From IMG/VR virus record IMGVR_UViG_3300023174_000497, positions 1 to 29,773 of that record: a stretch of 29,773 nucleotides of DNA, one strand, 5' to 3'. This stretch comes from a virus. Below are positions 6,130 through 19,026 of this stretch, piece by piece; the first letter of the stretch is position 1, and every line of letters begins with the position of its first letter. A program made the translations under genes and the position numbers. The notes under the pieces were generated by a model. The model made no database searches and was not told the origin of the DNA. It saw only the letters and a program-made list of their open reading frames with translations.

Positions 6130-6696
6130 CTACTTAACCTTTTCTACGGTAAAATAATCATATCTAAAATTTACTCGTGATGATATGTGCGGTGTGTCTG
6201 TGTTTGTTGAATCAAACTGAACCTCACTTAAAGCCACCGGGTGAATATCTACAAAAGATATGGAAAGGTGTGGGTTATTTTTGCTGCTATTAACCATGAG
6301 GGTTGCTTGACCAAATACCTTCTGTATTCCGGGCCTGTTGTTTGGTATTTTTGGAAGCTCCCCATCTAAGTTCTTAAGCTGTCCTCTATACAAAGCACCA
6401 AACTGTGCCTGGCTTTCTGGGAACGATATAGCTTGCATCCAGGAAAAAATCTCATACCAATTGCGCATCTCTTCATCTACCTTAAACTCCACCACAAGCT
6501 CACCAAATCGCATGTGGTCTCCAGTCCAGTTGACACGAACAAATGGGTTAGTACCAGCATTAGTAGCCGGACTTAAGGCTACAGTGGGAAGAGTCACTTT
6601 CTGTACGAAGAAGTTGAAGTCGGGCAAACGGTCTACACTGAAGTTAAAATTCAGAGGAGTTTGAAAGTTTCTGTTTTTAACTTCGTTAATAGCCAT
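6130..6696 (-). CDS. 3: Tail-tube-fold protein, probably tail completion protein gp3
   Basis: This 188-residue protein shares the layout of the gp19 tail tube encoded at 12856-13479: an N-terminal strand, a Leu-Pro/Val-Ala-rich loop (VQKVTLPTVAL), a W-x-G/D strand, and an acidic DEE...W helix ending in a WM motif (EIFSWMQ). It closes with a paired-strand FRYDYFTVEKV. In T4 relatives the protein between gene 23 and uvsY is often gp3, which caps the head-proximal end of the tail tube and stabilises the sheath. That context, plus the 176-residue length of T4 gp3, supports gp3 over a second tube gene. A late box (CATAAATA) lies 30 bases upstream. The tube-like fold is fairly sure; the gp3 name is less so. 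Confidence 0.75.
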   Translation of the reverse strand: MAINEVKNRNFQTPLNFNFSVDRLPDFNFFVQKVTLPTVALSPATNAGTNPFVRVNWTGDHMRFGELVVEFKVDEEMRNWYEIFSWMQAISFPESQAQFGALYRGQLKNLDGELPKIPNNRPGIQKVFGQATLMVNSSKNNPHLSISFVDIHPVALSEVQFDSTNTDTPHISSRVNFRYDYFTVEKVK

Positions 6697-12855: not shown

Positions 12856-13479
12856 TTAAGTATTTTTGTTACCTTCTGGATCTGATACGTCACCGTTAGT
12901 TTCAACTTCCCAGTAATCGTATTCCAAAGTAACGTCAAAAGTTTCAATCTTATCAGTGTCTTCCCAAGCAAGCTTGATTTCACTGATTTCAGTTGGGAAC
13001 ACATTTACAAAGTGATATACACGAATTGCTTGCTCAACTGGACCTTTGCTGTAGTGTTTTACACGAGCTGAGGTCTGATATGATTGTGGTCCGGCATTTG
13101 CACCAGAATTTCTAACGTTTGTTGCATGGCCGTTAATTGAAGCCATCCAATGCTCAAACGCCTTACGGATCAAGAAATCCTCGTCATTCAAAATGGTGAT
13201 ACGCCAAGGCTCATCAAAGCTACGATTTCCAGCAACCTTCACCTTTCTACCGAAGTAAGGTACTGTAATCATTCCTAATTTGCTTGCTGGAATGCTTGCT
13301 GCGTTACAGAGGAATGAAATCTTATCATTAACTCCAGCACCAGCAAGTCCCTGACCATCAACACCGTTGTTGGCCCCATCAATAATATTAGACGGAAGAC
13401 CCATCTCTACTTGGAAGAGAGATGGGCGAGCGCCACCATAAACCAATTTGTTCTTAAAGTCTTGAATTTTAAAAGGCAT
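12856..13479 (-). CDS. 19: Tail tube protein gp19
   Basis: This 207-residue protein directly follows the sheath gene, as in T4 (gp19 163 residues). It has the gp19 pattern: a FQVEMGLP-like strand, SFLCNAASIPASKLG, a VPYFGRKVKVAGNRSFD strand, WRITILNDEDFLIRKAFEHWM, and a C-terminal YDYWEVE strand. Copies of gp19 stack as hexameric rings to form the inner tube inside the contractile sheath. The extra length is mostly in the glycine/asparagine-rich loop near residues 32-52 and in the C-terminal tail. GGAG precedes the ATG, and an ACTAAATA box overlaps the end of gene 18 just upstream. Confidence 0.92.
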   Translation of the reverse strand: MPFKIQDFKNKLVYGGARPSLFQVEMGLPSNIIDGANNGVDGQGLAGAGVNDKISFLCNAASIPASKLGMITVPYFGRKVKVAGNRSFDEPWRITILNDEDFLIRKAFEHWMASINGHATNVRNSGANAGPQSYQTSARVKHYSKGPVEQAIRVYHFVNVFPTEISEIKLAWEDTDKIETFDVTLEYDYWEVETNGDVSDPEGNKNT

Positions 13480-13500: not shown

Positions 13501-13508
13501 TATTTAGT
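13501..13508 (-). promoter_or_regulatory. Late promoter box at the gene 18 stop (ACTAAATA)
   Basis: ACTAAATA on the minus strand begins in the last base of the gene 18 TAA stop and lies 22 bases before the gene 19 ATG, with a GGAG site between. Confidence 0.5.
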
Positions 13509-15661
13509 TACACCTTTCCAACTACCTCAGAGAACTCAACTCCGGTGCGAACCGCAACAAACTTAAGCTCAATAAAGTTAATAGAACGGGCTGGTTTAAT
13601 GTAAATGTCACCTCTAAACTCATTTCGGTCAATTACTTCTCCAGTGTTATTTGTGCGGTCACAAACTACACGGAAATCGTAAATTCCTCGACGAGCTTGA
13701 ATATCTCTCAAATATGGCTCAACCAAACTTCTGAATTGCTGACGAGTGAACTCATCGTTAAACTCGAACAACATGTATTTGGCATACTTAGCAATAGACT
13801 TCTCCAACACAATGAACAAACGACGAACGTTAATTCTGTCAAATGCACTTGGTTTTGAAAGAAGGGTCTTATCGCCGAACAAAATTGTTCCTTGACCTTG
13901 CTGAGAAATGACTGGATTTACTCCACCCAAGTAGAGGTCGTCTCTTTGTGACTTAAATGGGCTGTATGCCAACTTAAGAACGTTTTTAACATTTCCTCTA
14001 TTGTATCCAGCAGGAGACCACCAAGAGTCTTGCTGTGTATCGGTTCTAACACACAATCCAGCAATATCTCCGTTAAGTGGAACCCAACGTGCTACGTCAT
14101 TGTACTTGTCGTACTGATACTTCCAGCCACTGTCCATAACAGCATATGATGTTGATGGAAGAAGATTTCTGAAGGTAAGAGTATCTTCTACTTCGCTACC
14201 ATCGTTATCAATTACAGCAGCTCTAGGTGGCGAAATGAACGCCATGCAATCCTTACGAGACTCACAGATGTTGTTAATTACGTGAATTACAACGTTAGCT
14301 TCTGCGTCTCCAAGCATCACAAGAGAAATATCAACCAACTCTGGATTTCTGAAGAGATCGTATCCCTTAATTAATCCAGCATCTACGGCTGGGAACAAGT
14401 CCTTGTCGTTAGAATCTTTACCACCAGCAAGAGTTACTGTGTATGGCTTTTTAGGAGCATCATACGCATCAACATCTTGAGCACGAGTGCCCCAGTTGGT
14501 TGCCGTAGGAAGGTGATCTGTCCAGCGAGCGTATTTTGAACGACTGTTCAATACGTTGGCATAGTAAGAAGAAGAACCATCTTCAGTCTTTGCATCAGAT
14601 GCTTTAGACATGAAAGTGTGGCGCTCAAGAATGGTGCCCTTGGTTCCAGAAATCTTACCATCAGCATCTACAACCACAACATGAAGCTCATCGTCAGATG
14701 CGCCTTTGTTTTGTGCAAATGCAGAAGAATCTGGCTTAATTCCAACAGAATCAGCAAACTCCCACTTAGCAGAAAGTTTTGCATCTGCAAGAGTTGGAGA
14801 GAAAGCAGCATTAACTGTCATTGTGGTATTATTGGCAATCGAAAGAACCATTCTTTCTTGACCAGAAACAGGATCTTTAATGATAGATCCAGGAGCAAGC
14901 TCTTCTGTAAACTTAGTCAATGTTCCAGTAACCACACGAGACCCTGCAACAGTAGAAACCGCTCCAGAAAGCTCTGGGTTCTTAAACGCAAGAGAACTTG
15001 GGCACATAGAAACTTTGATGCTATTTCCAAGCTCTCCAGCATGTTTTGCGGCAAAAGGGCCACAATCAGCAGAGCCGTTAGCAAAGTTTTCTAGGTAGTG
15101 ATTGTCATTTTTAATCAAAACTCCGACGCCTTTCTCACCACTTCCAGTCATAGACTCAGCAGTTGCATTAAGACATCCAATGTAGTTTTTGATAATAACA
15201 GTCTCGTCGGTAAGATCAGTATCAAAAGCCTCTTCTAAAAGAAGTTCTGTGTCACTAATTACACGAGCTACAGAAATCTCTCGTCCTTCGTGGCTAACCA
15301 AATCTCCGGCACGAACTTTATGCTCTCCAGAACGAAGACCTTCAGTAATAAGAGTGGTTCCTTCGGTGGATGCGGTAAGCTCAAGGTTTACCCGGGAAAG
15401 GGTATCTGCGCAGCGAACAAGACGGAGCTTGTTACCATACGCCAAGAAATTTGCTGCGGTAAAGAAAGACACAGCAGTTGCGTTATCTGGTGTTCCAAAC
15501 TCTCGTGCAAGCTGAAGCTCATCTCCTACTAAAACTATTTCCTCTAATGGACCCCATCGGAAAACCCCTGCATACGCACCATCAGTTGTCGATACTGCGG
15601 GAACGATCCCGGTCATATCAACTTCTGTAACGTTTACTCCTGGTGATATTTGAAATCCCAT
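13508..15661 (-). CDS. 18: Contractile tail sheath protein gp18
   Basis: This 717-residue protein is the sheath subunit (T4 gp18 is 659). The N terminus (QISPGVNVTEVDMT, then GAYAGVFRWGP) and the C-terminal half carry family hallmarks, including PPRAAVIDND, a SWWSPAGYNRG stretch, FGDKTLLSKPSAFDRINVRRLF and the final strand region (SINFIELKFVAVRTG). The middle (roughly residues 90-330) is the variable, surface-exposed insertion typical of gp18. Sheath contraction drives the tube through the host envelope. AGGAGAG precedes the ATG, and a TATAAATA box lies about 77 bases upstream in a 108-base gap after gene 17. That promoter could allow strong sheath expression independent of the interrupted terminase gene. 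Confidence 0.96.
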   Translation of the reverse strand: MGFQISPGVNVTEVDMTGIVPAVSTTDGAYAGVFRWGPLEEIVLVGDELQLAREFGTPDNATAVSFFTAANFLAYGNKLRLVRCADTLSRVNLELTASTEGTTLITEGLRSGEHKVRAGDLVSHEGREISVARVISDTELLLEEAFDTDLTDETVIIKNYIGCLNATAESMTGSGEKGVGVLIKNDNHYLENFANGSADCGPFAAKHAGELGNSIKVSMCPSSLAFKNPELSGAVSTVAGSRVVTGTLTKFTEELAPGSIIKDPVSGQERMVLSIANNTTMTVNAAFSPTLADAKLSAKWEFADSVGIKPDSSAFAQNKGASDDELHVVVVDADGKISGTKGTILERHTFMSKASDAKTEDGSSSYYANVLNSRSKYARWTDHLPTATNWGTRAQDVDAYDAPKKPYTVTLAGGKDSNDKDLFPAVDAGLIKGYDLFRNPELVDISLVMLGDAEANVVIHVINNICESRKDCMAFISPPRAAVIDNDGSEVEDTLTFRNLLPSTSYAVMDSGWKYQYDKYNDVARWVPLNGDIAGLCVRTDTQQDSWWSPAGYNRGNVKNVLKLAYSPFKSQRDDLYLGGVNPVISQQGQGTILFGDKTLLSKPSAFDRINVRRLFIVLEKSIAKYAKYMLFEFNDEFTRQQFRSLVEPYLRDIQARRGIYDFRVVCDRTNNTGEVIDRNEFRGDIYIKPARSINFIELKFVAVRTGVEFSEVVGKV

Positions 15662-15769: not shown

Positions 15770-16960
15770 CTAAAAGTCGTCGTCCGACTCGTTATTATTG
15801 TATGAGCCGTTTCCAAAACCATAATTAAATTTGGATTCTGCGGTTTCCCAAATATCACCCTGCTCGTCCACAAAAATCTCTGGAACATCCCCTCCAGCAT
15901 CAATCACCCCAAAGGGGAGAAGTTGCTCACTTTCGTGTTGAACCCTCTCGTCAAAGATTTTCTTTCGAACGTCGGTATCGGTAAGCTCTTTAAAGGCGGG
16001 TTGGGCCACTAGCCAAGAAAACAAAACCAGAGTCATAACTAAGTCATCGTTACATCCAGGCTCGGCGGCAAAGGATGGCCCGGTGGCTACAAAAGATGTT
16101 AGTTCAGATATAATGTCAAAATCTTGAATGATAAGCTTGCTGTTTTCAATCAGCCCTTTTAAGTTGGAACACCCAATAGCTTTAATTTGGCTAGTCATCT
16201 TAATTCCAAACTTAGAGTTTTTAGAAAACCCTTGGGAGATTCTTTGCCCACCTCTACCTAAGTTTGTTGTAGAAAAAATATTCTCGTATTCCAGATCATT
16301 GTACAATCCGTCCACAACTTGAGAACCAATCGAATTACTTTCCACAAGGCAATACGCAAAATTGTATTTTACAGCCACGTTGTATATTACGTTTGGGTAG
16401 ACTAGAGGAGTTATTTTATTGTCATAGTACTTAGCCACTACTTTATATGGAGTTTGAGAACAGTCTATTACGGTAAAGGCAGAATAATCTAAACTCTGTC
16501 CCTCAGAGGTATCCACTGCAATAACGTACAAATGTCCCTGTTTTGGGTGCTCATATATGTGCAAATTACCAATTCTTTCTATTGGAGGAGCCCAAGCAAG
16601 AGTGCTTAGTTTGGCACCTGATATAAGGGTATTTGTTGAGCCAAGAAATTCACAGTTGTGGCTCAATACTCCATTTGTATAATATACGTTTTTGTTTGTT
16701 CTTAACGCATCATATAGCCAAATGTCCTTGTTTATACGACGTTTGTATTTTAAAAAAATGCCCCCAGTATCACTGTATATTTCATTCTTGGTGGTTAAAT
16801 TTTTAGCAAGCACAATCCCATTATAAGTCATAAATGGGTGATTTTCAGAACACTCTAAAGTTTTACCATTAGTAAAAAAGCACTTATAGTAACAAGAGTA
16901 CTTTGATCGCCTAATTCCGGCGTATGGTGATATACCACTGGGAGTTTTAATAAAACTCAT
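15770..16960 (-). CDS. 17: Split large terminase gp17, C-terminal part: C-intein plus nuclease domain
   Basis: This 396-residue protein has two parts. Residues 1-102 are a C-intein. It contains a block-B-like CSENHPF (His at residue 41) and a C-terminal splice block YYTNGVLSHN ending in the catalytic His-Asn. Cys103, the +1 nucleophile, begins the extein (CEFLGS). The remainder is the gp17 RNase-H-like nuclease: AVDTSEG (Asp near residue 150), LVESNSIG (Glu near 207) and CNDDLVM (Asp near 305), matching the D-E-D triad of T4 gp17. I start at the ATG at 16958-16960. It has AGGTG six bases upstream and overlaps the stop of the preceding ORF as ATGA, so the two halves are translationally coupled. 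An upstream in-frame TTG is less likely. Splicing to the N part would give a terminase of about 568 residues (T4 gp17 is 610). Confidence 0.93.
   Translation of the reverse strand: MSFIKTPSGISPYAGIRRSKYSCYYKCFFTNGKTLECSENHPFMTYNGIVLAKNLTTKNEIYSDTGGIFLKYKRRINKDIWLYDALRTNKNVYYTNGVLSHNCEFLGSTNTLISGAKLSTLAWAPPIERIGNLHIYEHPKQGHLYVIAVDTSEGQSLDYSAFTVIDCSQTPYKVVAKYYDNKITPLVYPNVIYNVAVKYNFAYCLVESNSIGSQVVDGLYNDLEYENIFSTTNLGRGGQRISQGFSKNSKFGIKMTSQIKAIGCSNLKGLIENSKLIIQDFDIISELTSFVATGPSFAAEPGCNDDLVMTLVLFSWLVAQPAFKELTDTDVRKKIFDERVQHESEQLLPFGVIDAGGDVPEIFVDEQGDIWETAESKFNYGFGNGSYNNNESDDDF
16655..16960 (-). other. C-intein (about 102 residues) of the gp17 split intein
   Basis: Residues 1-102 of the C-terminal ORF. 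Besides the HN end and +1 Cys, the segment starts SFIKTPSGISPYAGI, contains CSENHPF and LYDALRTNKNVYYTNG, and is much longer than a canonical C-intein (about 35-50 residues), because block B lies here rather than in the N half. From memory this layout matches the AceL-TerL C-intein (about 104 residues), which sits in the same host protein before the same CEF extein start. Confidence 0.9.
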
Positions 16961-17574
16961 GATAACACCTTTTTGCAAATAATATTATAGATGCTTGCGG
17001 AACATACGTTGTATTTTTTGTAAACTAGATTTGAAAACTGTCTTTCTATAGACAATTGCCTTCCATTCTTTGATACAGACTCTTTTAGGGTATTTTTTAC
17101 TTCTTCAAACTCTTTTCTTACAGCAGCATAATCAACTTTTAATTTGCTGTGAATTTTACCCTTTCTGTTTTGCGACCATTTAAATCTAGTTTCTGCTGAT
17201 GGCTTTCTACCCTTTCCTGGAGCACCAAGCCGTTTTACTCGTGCTTTTGCAGACTGGGACATTTTTTGTTTCGATTCTGTGGAATACTTATACCCTAGAG
17301 TAGTAAAATTTGGAGCGTGGTGGTTCCCTTTCCCATCTAAAGATTCATTTAATCCAGTATTATATGAGTCATAGTATTGGATGTAATGTGCCTCTTTTAC
17401 ATCAATGTATTCTTTTGATGTGGACTCTTCAAGTATTTCAAAAGTAAATTCGTATCCTTTAAATCTGGCACTGTTGTTATGTTGAGATAATCTATTATTA
17501 ATTCTATCTTTGATTGTTGTGCCAATATAAATTTTTTGATCATCCCGAGTTATTTTATACACAACATAAATTCG
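16957..17574 (-). mobile_element. GIY-YIG homing endonuclease with NUMOD3-like motifs, fused to the N-intein
   Basis: Residues 300-504 of the N-terminal ORF. The GIY-YIG core reads VVYKIT (303-308) and KIYIGTT (313-319), with Arg323/Arg327, a His-Asn at 331-332, the catalytic Glu likely at 360 (KEAHYIQYYDSY), and a closing YNTGLN. DNA-binding repeats follow, resembling NUMOD3: YSTESKQKMSQSAKAR (396-411) and KPSAETRFKWSQNRKGK (423-439). A possible helix-turn-helix end (ERQFSNLVYKKYNVCSASIYNII) completes it. There is no methionine between the N-intein and residue 404, so it should be made as part of the terminase precursor and released by splicing. Confidence 0.88.
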
Positions 17575-18471
17575 TGTTGCTTGGTTGAATACAGACTCAA
17601 TTGTTTGCTGGCCATGTTGTGTTGTTATCAAGGTATTTCCAGACACACAACCAAACTCTTGATTGAACTTCTCTTCACCAAGTTGTTTTCTTTGGTCTTC
17701 TGCCCATGCTTCATCTCGTCCGGGAACATCAGAATAATGTGCCTCAATAGGAACATATAGATTTCGTTTATTTACTGCGTCAGTCCAGTATTTGTAGAAC
17801 AGGTTCATTCCGTTTGGTGTGGAGACCATGATGACCTTGGTGGTCTTACCGGACGAAATAGTGGGATATACGGAAGTAATAAACTCTTCTGCGATATTTT
17901 TTGGCACGAAGGCAAATTCGTCCAAAAACAAAATGGAATATGTATTTCCACGAGCCGCACTAGACGCAGTAGCAGCAGCAATAACTTTTGATCCGTTTTC
18001 TAATTCAATAGAACCTTTATTCCACTGAGCAATTCCTTGCTGCATCCATAATGGAATATGTTCATACGCAAGTTGAAGTTTTGAAAGAATGTCTCTTGCG
18101 GTCGCTGCTTTATTCGCAAGAATTGCAATATTTTGCATTGGACCAAACAGCACAGTCCACATTAAATATCCAATGGTTACAGTACTTTTTCCACATTGTC
18201 TCGAAAGTTTGGCAATTGTGAAACGATTATTAATGTACGAGTTTAATAATTTCTTTTGAAAGTCATATAATTTAAACGGCACAAGTCCACGGTCTATGTG
18301 AACAATTTTCATGTATTTTTCAATGAAGTAGATTGGGTCTTGCGAGCACCTAATGCGCTCTTCAATCTGTTCTTTAGTGAAGACAAATGAAACCCCCTCA
18401 CCTTTAAGACAGGGATTATTTTTATAGAACCGCATTCCATTGGGCACTATCTGATTAAACTCATCACTCAT
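16957..18471 (-). CDS. 17: Split large terminase gp17, N-terminal part: ATPase + N-intein + GIY-YIG endonuclease
   Basis: This 504-residue precursor has three parts. Residues 1-274 are the packaging ATPase: Walker A SRQCGKST (90-97), Walker B ILFLDE (180-185), and the coupling motif VSTPNG (216-221). Residues 275-299 are an N-intein starting at Cys275 right after the extein QEFG, with the block A pattern CVSGNTLITT. Residues 300-504 are a GIY-YIG endonuclease with NUMOD3-like motifs. The ORF ends in TGA, which overlaps the ATG of the C-terminal part. The terminase motor packages DNA through the portal, so trans-splicing should be essential. The ATG follows gene 16 closely. Before splicing, this half has no nuclease domain. 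Confidence 0.95.
   Translation of the reverse strand: MSDEFNQIVPNGMRFYKNNPCLKGEGVSFVFTKEQIEERIRCSQDPIYFIEKYMKIVHIDRGLVPFKLYDFQKKLLNSYINNRFTIAKLSRQCGKSTVTIGYLMWTVLFGPMQNIAILANKAATARDILSKLQLAYEHIPLWMQQGIAQWNKGSIELENGSKVIAAATASSAARGNTYSILFLDEFAFVPKNIAEEFITSVYPTISSGKTTKVIMVSTPNGMNLFYKYWTDAVNKRNLYVPIEAHYSDVPGRDEAWAEDQRKQLGEEKFNQEFGCVSGNTLITTQHGQQTIESVFNQATRIYVVYKITRDDQKIYIGTTIKDRINNRLSQHNNSARFKGYEFTFEILEESTSKEYIDVKEAHYIQYYDSYNTGLNESLDGKGNHHAPNFTTLGYKYSTESKQKMSQSAKARVKRLGAPGKGRKPSAETRFKWSQNRKGKIHSKLKVDYAAVRKEFEEVKNTLKESVSKNGRQLSIERQFSNLVYKKYNVCSASIYNIICKKVLS
17575..17649 (-). other. N-intein (about 25 residues) of the gp17 split intein
   Basis: Residues 275-299 of the N-terminal ORF: Cys1, then VSGNTLITTQHGQQTIESVF and a few more residues before the GIY-YIG domain begins. 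Only block A is present. Canonical N-inteins are about 90-120 residues and include block B. The length and position agree with the atypical AceL-TerL class (25-residue N-intein in the same protein, from memory). The exact C-terminal boundary with the endonuclease is uncertain by a few residues. Confidence 0.88.
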
Positions 18472-18477
18472 ATAAGT

Positions 18478-19026
18478 TTATTCACTATCATCTTTTGGTT
18501 TAGTCATCTTCTTAATAATCTCGTCCAACTGAGCTGTGTTTCCCACAAACAAGTTATTGTTAATTACATCAGGTTGATTCTTTGCCACAATCCCTTCAAT
18601 TTTGGCTTTCTGTTGGTGGATTGTCATCAAATCCTTCTGGGCGCTCGCAATAGTATTAACCAAAAGAGCCACAACCTCATAAGCCCTTGGATGTTGGCTT
18701 TGGTCTGCTATTTGAGCCAGATTAGTTAAAGCTTCCACAGAACGCTCTGTAATAGCGTAGAGGTTGGTTCGCACATACTGATAGTCTGTAGCCAAATCGT
18801 CCTGTGGAGCCTTTTCTGGGCTATTAGAAGGGGTAATATCAACGGTAGGGGGTGGGGTAGGAAAAAATGCCCCTGAAAGGGCTTTGGATTCCCCGGAAAC
18901 TTCTTTTGAATCGTTTTCCAAACTCTGAGGTAAGTCTTTTTGGGACTTTTTGGAGATATTTTTTATCTCGTCGTCAGATGGAATAAACTTGTTTTGTTCA
19001 AGAAACTTAAAATCATCGTCAGCCAT
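18478..19026 (-). CDS. 16: Small terminase subunit gp16
   Basis: This 182-residue protein lies directly before gene 17, as in T4 (gp16 is 164). The first 80 residues look disordered and acidic/proline-rich (FFPTPPPTVDITP). The helical core at about residues 85-140 (DYQYVRTNLYAITERSVEALTNLAQIA, then HPRAYEVVALLVNTI) is typical of gp16, which forms oligomeric rings that recognise concatemeric DNA and regulate the gp17 motor. The C-terminal helix (AQLDEIIKKM) is a candidate gp17 contact. The gene ends six bases before the gene 17 ATG. The long N-terminal linker is unusual compared with T4. Confidence 0.92.
   Translation of the reverse strand: MADDDFKFLEQNKFIPSDDEIKNISKKSQKDLPQSLENDSKEVSGESKALSGAFFPTPPPTVDITPSNSPEKAPQDDLATDYQYVRTNLYAITERSVEALTNLAQIADQSQHPRAYEVVALLVNTIASAQKDLMTIHQQKAKIEGIVAKNQPDVINNNLFVGNTAQLDEIIKKMTKPKDDSE

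What the first reader, a model, noticed from the sequence alone, without database searches (positions are those of the whole stretch)
16655..17649. Atypical split intein with an ultra-short N half in the large terminase
gp17 is divided into two ORFs. The first carries only intein block A (Cys275 plus about 24 residues) after the extein QEFG. The second starts with a C-intein of about 102 residues that contains block B (CSENHPF) and the HN end, followed by Cys and the rest of gp17. Canonical split inteins break after block B. From memory, the known exception class is AceL-TerL/VidaL, which sits at the same TerL position. This one looks like a new member with its own sequence.
Basis: partly seen in the sequence, partly recalled or inferred. 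Interest (0 to 1): 0.9.

Follow-up and report, generated by a model that had tools for sequence, protein, structure and literature searches.

The report
Split intein carrying its own endonuclease
A phage's DNA-packaging motor gene is broken into two overlapping genes that a self-removing protein element should stitch together, and, unlike the described relatives, the short first half of that element is fused to a DNA-cutting enzyme that would be released by the stitching and could spread the element to other phages.

Summary
In detail: terL (gp17) is split across two ORFs by an atypically split intein, and the intein boundaries (17649/16655) are exact. ORF1 does not end after about 25 intein residues. 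It continues in frame for 204 residues as a GIY-YIG homing endonuclease (Pfam 1.5e-6, above cut-off; invariant Y/Y-x-G/R/H/E/N residues). ORF2 starts on the ORF1 stop codon (ATGA) behind a Shine-Dalgarno sequence and carries a 102-aa C-intein plus the C-extein. A C-intein profile built without this class hits at 4.8e-29, and the predicted fold matches CatC (6dsl). Precise empty alleles exist. The usual architecture in relatives of AceL/GOS-TerL is three ORFs (IntN stop / free endonuclease / IntC). The window's IntN-endonuclease fusion recurs in 3 other IMG/VR contigs and in cultured Vibrio phages; a parallel fusion with another nuclease at another terL site occurs in E. coli phages (phiS, kaaroe, JK32) and Shewanella phage Thanatos-2. 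PX29 has the mirror fusion, already noted in its record. I found no description of the N-fusion in the papers held. Verdict: a real new variant of a known kind. Splicing and homing are inferred, not shown.

The parts
16957..18471 (-). ORF1, 504 aa: TerL N-extein + N-intein + GIY-YIG endonuclease in one frame
17650..18471 (-). TerL N-extein (residues 1-274), ATPase domain
   Evidence: Pfam Terminase_6N 8.4e-21; 81-90% identical to intein-free homologues L085-L099
17572..17649 (-). N-intein (IntN), about 26 residues, CVSGNTLITTQHGQQTIESVFNQATR; Cys275 is the predicted first nucleophile
   Evidence: independent IntN profile E 0.0018, alignment starts at Cys275; TIGR01445 intein_Nterm starts there, below cut-off; strand-strand-helix in the model
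16960..17571 (-). GIY-YIG homing endonuclease, residues 301-504, fused in frame to IntN; NUMOD3-like and C-terminal DNA-binding-like region
   Evidence: Pfam GIY-YIG 1.5e-6, NUMOD3 0.045; phrog_314 homing endonuclease 3.7e-18; TIGR01453 4.6e-9 but below cut-off; Y305, Y315, G317, R327, H331, E360, N375 invariant in the fused set; free-endonuclease profile 7e-48
16966..16972 (-). Shine-Dalgarno sequence (AAAGGTG) for ORF2, inside the end of ORF1
   Evidence: AAAAAGG conserved just upstream of the ATG in L082 and L083
16957..16960 (-). ATGA stop/start overlap between ORF1 and ORF2
   Evidence: same overlap in L082 and L083; start adjacent to the stop in L084
15770..16960 (-). ORF2, 396 aa: C-intein + TerL C-extein
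16655..16960 (-). C-intein (IntC), 102 residues: block B CSENHPF (His41), blocks F/G ending SHN; His101-Asn102
   Evidence: CatC 6dsl_B; model pLDDT 90.5; G9, H41, D84, H101, N102 invariant in 46 relatives
15773..16654 (-). TerL C-extein starting with Cys+1 (CEFLGS...), nuclease domain
   Evidence: Pfam Terminase_6C 2.6e-11

Best explanation
This is a two-gene mobile intein in the T4-type large terminase. ORF1 is TerL(1-274)-IntN-GIY-YIG endonuclease. ORF2 is translated from an ATG overlapping the ORF1 stop with its own Shine-Dalgarno sequence and is IntC-TerL(C). IntN docks into IntC to complete a HINT domain. A class 1 reaction (Cys275, branched ester on Cys+1, cyclisation of Asn102 helped by His101) joins the exteins into a 568-aa terminase. 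It also releases a 230-aa IntN-endonuclease, probably still bound to IntC. The freed endonuclease cuts intein-less terL in co-infecting phages at QEFG|C(D/E)FLGS and repair copies the 995-bp element. Shown by computation: anatomy, exact empty site, fold family, intact catalytic residues, purifying selection, recurrence. Inferred from known families: trans-splicing, release, cleavage and homing.
For: Domain and profile matches for all three pieces. The IntC model hits CatC first. Catalytic residues are conserved. Exact empty alleles exist in metagenomic relatives and in cultured Vibrio phages: K440/D507 read KQEME|CSFRGS where K469 carries the element. The same architecture is found in L082, L083, L084 (168-kb contig), VP-1, K469-type and 1.244.A phages. 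The ATGA overlap and AAAAAGG are kept in L082 and L083 at about 60% endonuclease identity. All five segments are under purifying selection (pN/pS 0.12-0.56, synonymous sites near saturation). No RNA-family match at gathering scores, so no group I intron.
Against: No splicing, cleavage or homing data. IntN is short and by itself only weakly supported (E 0.0018). The foldseek search with the IntN-endonuclease model gave no significant PDB hit, so the endonuclease call rests on sequence profiles and conserved residues. The full assembled intein was not modelled because joined halves are not accepted by the tool. The fused class is rare: 4 IMG/VR contigs including the window.
Confidence: 0.83

Rival explanations
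1. A -1 ribosomal frameshift at C AAA AAG near the end of ORF1 makes one contiguous precursor (TerL N - IntN - endonuclease - IntC - TerL C) that splices in cis; the intein is not really split.
For: ORF2 is in the -1 frame and AAA AAG occurs just before the ORF1 stop in the window, L082 and L083.
Against: AAAAAGG serves equally as the Shine-Dalgarno sequence at the right spacing. L084 lacks the slippery codons and has ATG directly after the stop. In the Vibrio and E. coli phages the relative frame is different (+1) and the likely ORF2 start lies 10-20 nt inside ORF1, in the two best Vibrio cases behind a good Shine-Dalgarno sequence. Most relatives have separate ORFs.
Confidence: 0.06
2. Gene in pieces without splicing: the endonuclease broke terL and the two polypeptides work as a non-covalent terminase, as reported for a phage ribonucleotide reductase.
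For: There is precedent for a split gene that keeps function after homing-endonuclease insertion (stated in PMC10448857).
Against: Conserved HINT residues (Cys1, block B His, His-Asn, Cys+1), IntC conserved and under selection, contiguous inteins at the same site in relatives, precise empty site.
Confidence: 0.05
3. The interruption is a group I intron with a GIY-YIG ORF, removed at the RNA level.
For: The endonuclease resembles group I intron endonucleases (TIGR01453, below cut-off).
Against: No Rfam match; the 995 nt are fully accounted for by IntN, endonuclease and IntC coding sequence; IntC is clearly intein.
Confidence: 0.01
4. Assembly or sequencing artefact: a frameshift error in a normal contiguous intein.
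For: The ORF junction lies next to an A5 run in a metagenomic contig.
Against: The same break is seen in three other contigs at 50-61% endonuclease identity, with conserved Shine-Dalgarno sequence and ATG in L082 and L083, and an equivalent break in cultured phage genomes.
Confidence: 0.01

Closest known systems
Atypically split TerL inteins AceL-TerL / GOS-TerL (consensus Cat, PDB 6dsl)
   Same: IntN-type block A of about 25-30 residues, about 100-residue IntC with block B, inserted in terL; IntC and IntN homologous to CatC and CatN (descriptions in PMC11766414)
   Different: Described with a stand-alone short IntN; here IntN is fused to a 204-aa GIY-YIG endonuclease and the element is two overlapping ORFs instead of three
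Fractured genes (split intein halves with an intervening endonuclease gene; Dassa et al. 2009, cited in PMC10448857; AceL NrdHF in PMC7891396)
   Same: Host gene broken by a split intein with an endonuclease between the halves; GIY-YIG in AceL NrdHF
   Different: Endonuclease is a separate gene there and the split in AceL NrdHF is at the typical position; here it is fused to IntN and the split is atypical
Aeromonas phage PX29 gp17A/gp17B (GU396103)
   Same: terL split by N-intein and C-intein with a GIY-YIG/NUMOD3 domain
   Different: Mirror image: the endonuclease is fused to the front of IntC; already noted by the depositors
Vibrio phages VP-1, K469-type, 1.244.A
   Same: Same site, IntN-GIY-YIG fusion, overlapping IntC ORF
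   Different: Longer IntN (about 34 aa), about 30% identity in IntN-endonuclease and 24-31% in IntC, in K469-type and 1.244.A longer endonuclease tails, relative frame +1; annotated only as terminase, hypothetical or coil protein
E. coli Krischvirus phiS, kaaroe, JK32 and Shewanella Thanatos-2
   Same: IntN fused to a nuclease in ORF1, overlapping ORF2 with a long IntC
   Different: Different terL site (IDE|C) and different nuclease (TnsA/Endo I-like, Pfam)
I-TevI and T4 GIY-YIG endonucleases
   Same: GIY-YIG catalytic core plus NUMOD3-like linker
   Different: I-TevI lives in a group I intron; this one is fused to an intein half

Membership tests
Class 1 intein | Cys/Ser1, block B His, penultimate His and terminal Asn, Cys/Ser/Thr+1 | tested here: met
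   Cys275; SENH with His41; His101-Asn102; Cys+1
Class 1 intein | HINT fold | tested here: met
   IntC model pLDDT 90.5; first hit 6dsl CatC E 1.3e-7, then gp41-1 and others; full joined domain not modelled
Class 1 intein | Precise insertion with intact intein-free alleles | tested here: met
   QEFG|C(D/E)FLGS in empties; K440 vs K469
Class 1 intein | Protein splicing activity | not testable with these tools
   no wet-lab data
Atypically (S1) split intein, AceL/GOS-TerL group | Break between block A and block B, long IntC | tested here: met
   26-residue IntN, 102-residue IntC
Atypically (S1) split intein, AceL/GOS-TerL group | Homology of both halves to Cat (AceL/GOS consensus) | tested here: met
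   IntC vs CatC 1.3e-10; family IntN profile vs CatN 1.5e-13; window IntN alone 0.0018 against relatives
Atypically (S1) split intein, AceL/GOS-TerL group | Stand-alone short IntN precursor (stop directly after IntN) | tested here: not met
   ORF1 continues 204 aa as endonuclease
Fractured gene (three-gene layout) | Separate endonuclease ORF between the halves | tested here: not met
   endonuclease fused to IntN
GIY-YIG homing endonuclease | GIY-YIG domain with catalytic Y, Y, R, H, E, N | tested here: met
   Pfam 28.8 bits vs cut-off 22.6; invariant residues
GIY-YIG homing endonuclease | Cleaves the empty site and homes | not testable with these tools
   only presence/absence polymorphism seen
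VidaL-type intein | Same TerL insertion site | not tested
   only sequence/fold similarity to 6vgv seen

The most novel reading that the evidence does not exclude
The atypical S1 split is a consequence of endonuclease invasion. GIY-YIG (and, separately, TnsA/Endo I-like) nucleases entered contiguous mini-inteins at the loop after block A. Their free C-terminal DNA-binding tails cannot sit inside a continuous intein, so the gene was broken right behind or around them. The result is a two-polypeptide mobile element in which trans-splicing both repairs the terminase and releases the endonuclease. The state has arisen more than once.
Probability: 0.45. Interest if true: 0.72.

Novelty: new variant of a known kind. 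Interest (0 to 1): 0.6.

Why it matters
Atypically split inteins are prized tools, but why nature splits them after about 25 residues is, as far as I know, unexplained. Here the split site coincides with an endonuclease in several arrangements at one terL site: free between the halves, fused to IntN, fused to IntC (PX29), or absent, plus contiguous mini-inteins and empty alleles. That makes the origin of the split testable, and in cultured phages; the parallel fusion at another terL site is in phages that infect E. coli K-12. It also shows that the native partner of a short IntN can be a large folded C-terminal domain, which constrains models in which IntN has to thread into IntC.

Tried and rejected
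Group I intron (Rfam at gathering score and permissive: nothing relevant). Assembly frameshift (same break in independent contigs and cultured genomes). A conserved programmed frameshift (frame and motif not conserved). Single origin of the fusion: the endonuclease tree needs two changes, but one clade is not rejected (p-AU 0.36), so the number of origins is left open; the IntC tree is poorly resolved. Foldseek of the IntN-endonuclease model: no significant hit. Own-C-extein versus operator alignment scored locus by locus is mostly not above random; only the fixed register and the composite box with TATAAAT stand out. Several key papers (Dassa 2009, Bachmann 2015, Stevens 2018) were asked for and are not held, and Thiel 2014 was seen only as a citation, so novelty of the N-fusion is judged from the papers I could read and from record annotations.

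Full report
OBSERVATION. On the minus strand, ORF1 (16957-18471, 504 aa) and ORF2 (ATG at 16960, 15770-16960, 396 aa) together encode a T4-type large terminase, between gp16 (18478-19026) and gp18 (13508-15661). Intein-free homologues, 81-90% identical over the N-extein, read QEFG|C(D/E)FLGS at that point, so the boundary is exact.

WHAT WAS MISSED. ORF1 does not stop after the short N-intein. Residues 301-504 are a GIY-YIG endonuclease: Pfam 1.5e-6 above its cut-off, NUMOD3 weakly (0.045), phrog_314 homing endonuclease 3.7e-18. The AlphaFold2 model of IntN+endonuclease has a strand-strand-helix IntN followed by a high-confidence core (pLDDT about 96) and helices that fit a DNA-binding tail. 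Foldseek gave no significant PDB hit for it, so this assignment rests on profiles and on the invariant Y305, Y315, G317, R327, H331, E360 and N375.

INDEPENDENT TEST. Profiles built from relatives that do not have this architecture were run over all 624 open frames of the window. The IntC profile hits ORF2 at 4.8e-29, the free-endonuclease profile hits ORF1 at 7e-48, and the IntN profile hits ORF1 at 0.0018 starting at Cys275; nothing else passes. By profile, IntC hits CatC (6dsl_B) at 4.4e-30 and VidaL (6vgv) at 4.8e-7. The IntC model (pLDDT 90.5) finds 6dsl first. Codon comparison with L082, L083 and L084 shows purifying selection on all five segments (pN/pS 0.12-0.56 with synonymous sites near saturation).

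ARCHITECTURES AT THIS SITE. About 135 loci with an intein at the same terL site were classified: free GIY-YIG ORF between IntN and IntC (53), split without a recognised GIY-YIG (53), contiguous mini-intein (8, plus L049), N side not seen (15 as counted, L049 among them), and the fused form. Some of these loci are near-duplicates. The fused form occurs in the window, L082, L083, L084 (a 168-kb contig), Vibrio phage VP-1, K469 and six near-identical phages, and 1.244.A/1.255.O. Aeromonas phage PX29 has the mirror fusion, endonuclease-IntC, and its record says so. At another terL site, E. coli phages phiS, kaaroe and JK32 and Shewanella phage Thanatos-2 carry IntN fused to a TnsA/Endo I-like nuclease, again with an overlapping IntC ORF. 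In L281 a GIY-YIG-looking tail is fused to IntN at that other site (read by eye).

TRANSLATION. The ORF2 start overlaps the ORF1 stop as ATGA in the window, L082 and L083, with AAAAAGG just upstream; L084 has ATG right after the stop; K469, 1.244.A and the E. coli phages start ORF2 10-20 nt inside ORF1, in K469 and 1.244.A behind GGAG; the VP-1 start is not clear. The relative frame differs between lineages. This favours separate initiation over frameshifting.

TREES. The endonucleases of the fused form fall in two supported groups (window group 100/99; Vibrio group 98/95) among free ones. Two changes are needed, but a single clade is not rejected (p-AU 0.36). The IntC tree is weak but also separates them.

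MECHANISM. Shown: anatomy, empty site, fold family, residues, selection, recurrence. Inferred from class 1 inteins and GIY-YIG homing enzymes: trans-splicing to a 568-aa TerL, release of a 230-aa IntN-endonuclease, cutting of intein-less terL and repair copying of the 995 bp. A plausible reason for the break (inference): an I-TevI-like enzyme has its DNA-binding tail far from its N-terminus and cannot easily be an internal domain of a HINT fold, but it can hang from IntN if the polypeptide ends after it. Natural presence/absence in close cultured relatives (K469 with, K440 and D507 without) fits a mobile element.

A RELATED FINDING IN THE THREE-ORF LOCI. Directly behind IntN, overlapping or next to its stop, lies a copy of the first 15 or so bases of the C-extein followed by TATAAATA (TGTGAGTTTTTTGGATTATAAATA), then the free endonuclease ORF. 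The composite box is found in 28 of 53 such loci and nowhere else in 2.0 Mb of fetched sequence. TATAAATA marks late promoters in this phage group: four copies in the window, all on the coding strand, 48-84 nt before late genes, and a gp55-like late sigma factor is encoded. I-TevI represses itself through a homing-site-like operator overlapping its late promoter with 15/20 identity (PMC2988022). The box looks like the same device. Caveat: many of the 28 loci are close relatives, and alignment scores locus by locus are mostly not above random. The fused loci, the window included, lack it, so their endonuclease is tied to terminase expression.

NOVELTY. Atypical split TerL inteins, intervening GIY-YIG genes and the PX29 mirror fusion are known. 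I found no description of IntN-endonuclease fusions in the papers I could read, but several key papers are not held. I file it as a new variant of a known kind.

Noticed in passing
L046-L081, L231-L239 (e.g. L060:1666-1690): Three-ORF (AceL/GOS-like) loci carry, right behind IntN, a copy of the C-extein start fused to a T4 late promoter (TGTGAGTTTTTTGGATTATAAATA) in front of the free endonuclease: a likely I-TevI-style homing-site-mimic operator. 28 of 53 such loci, none elsewhere in 2.0 Mb.
   Followed up: partly
L281:2608-8016: terL appears split into four ORFs by three split inteins at three different sites, one IntN carrying a GIY-YIG-looking tail; three trans-splicing events would be needed for one terminase.
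   Followed up: partly
L054 vs L078 (and L074); L052 vs L066 and L070: Near-identical IntC in a split, endonuclease-bearing form and in a contiguous mini-intein form: recent conversion between the two states.
   Followed up: partly
L006-L010, L016, L053, L162 (VP-1), L169 (KpS110): A second, related intein at the Walker A motif of terL in many of these phages, sometimes split as well.
   Followed up: no
L028, L029, L032, L038, L044 between IntN and IntC: About 1.1 kb between the halves without a recognised GIY-YIG domain; probably another endonuclease type.
   Followed up: no
window 13508-15661: Tail sheath gp18 is enlarged (717 aa) and contains a stretch (about 233-300) matching tail fibre families.
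   Followed up: no
window 6130-6696 and 12856-13479: Two different tail tube (gp19-like, phrog_45) genes in one structural module.
   Followed up: no
MH363700, OZ195916, MG592609, MN850574, PP449093: Public records annotate these split terminases as separate terminase, hypothetical, DNA packaging enzyme or coil proteins without naming intein or endonuclease in the product name.
   Followed up: yes
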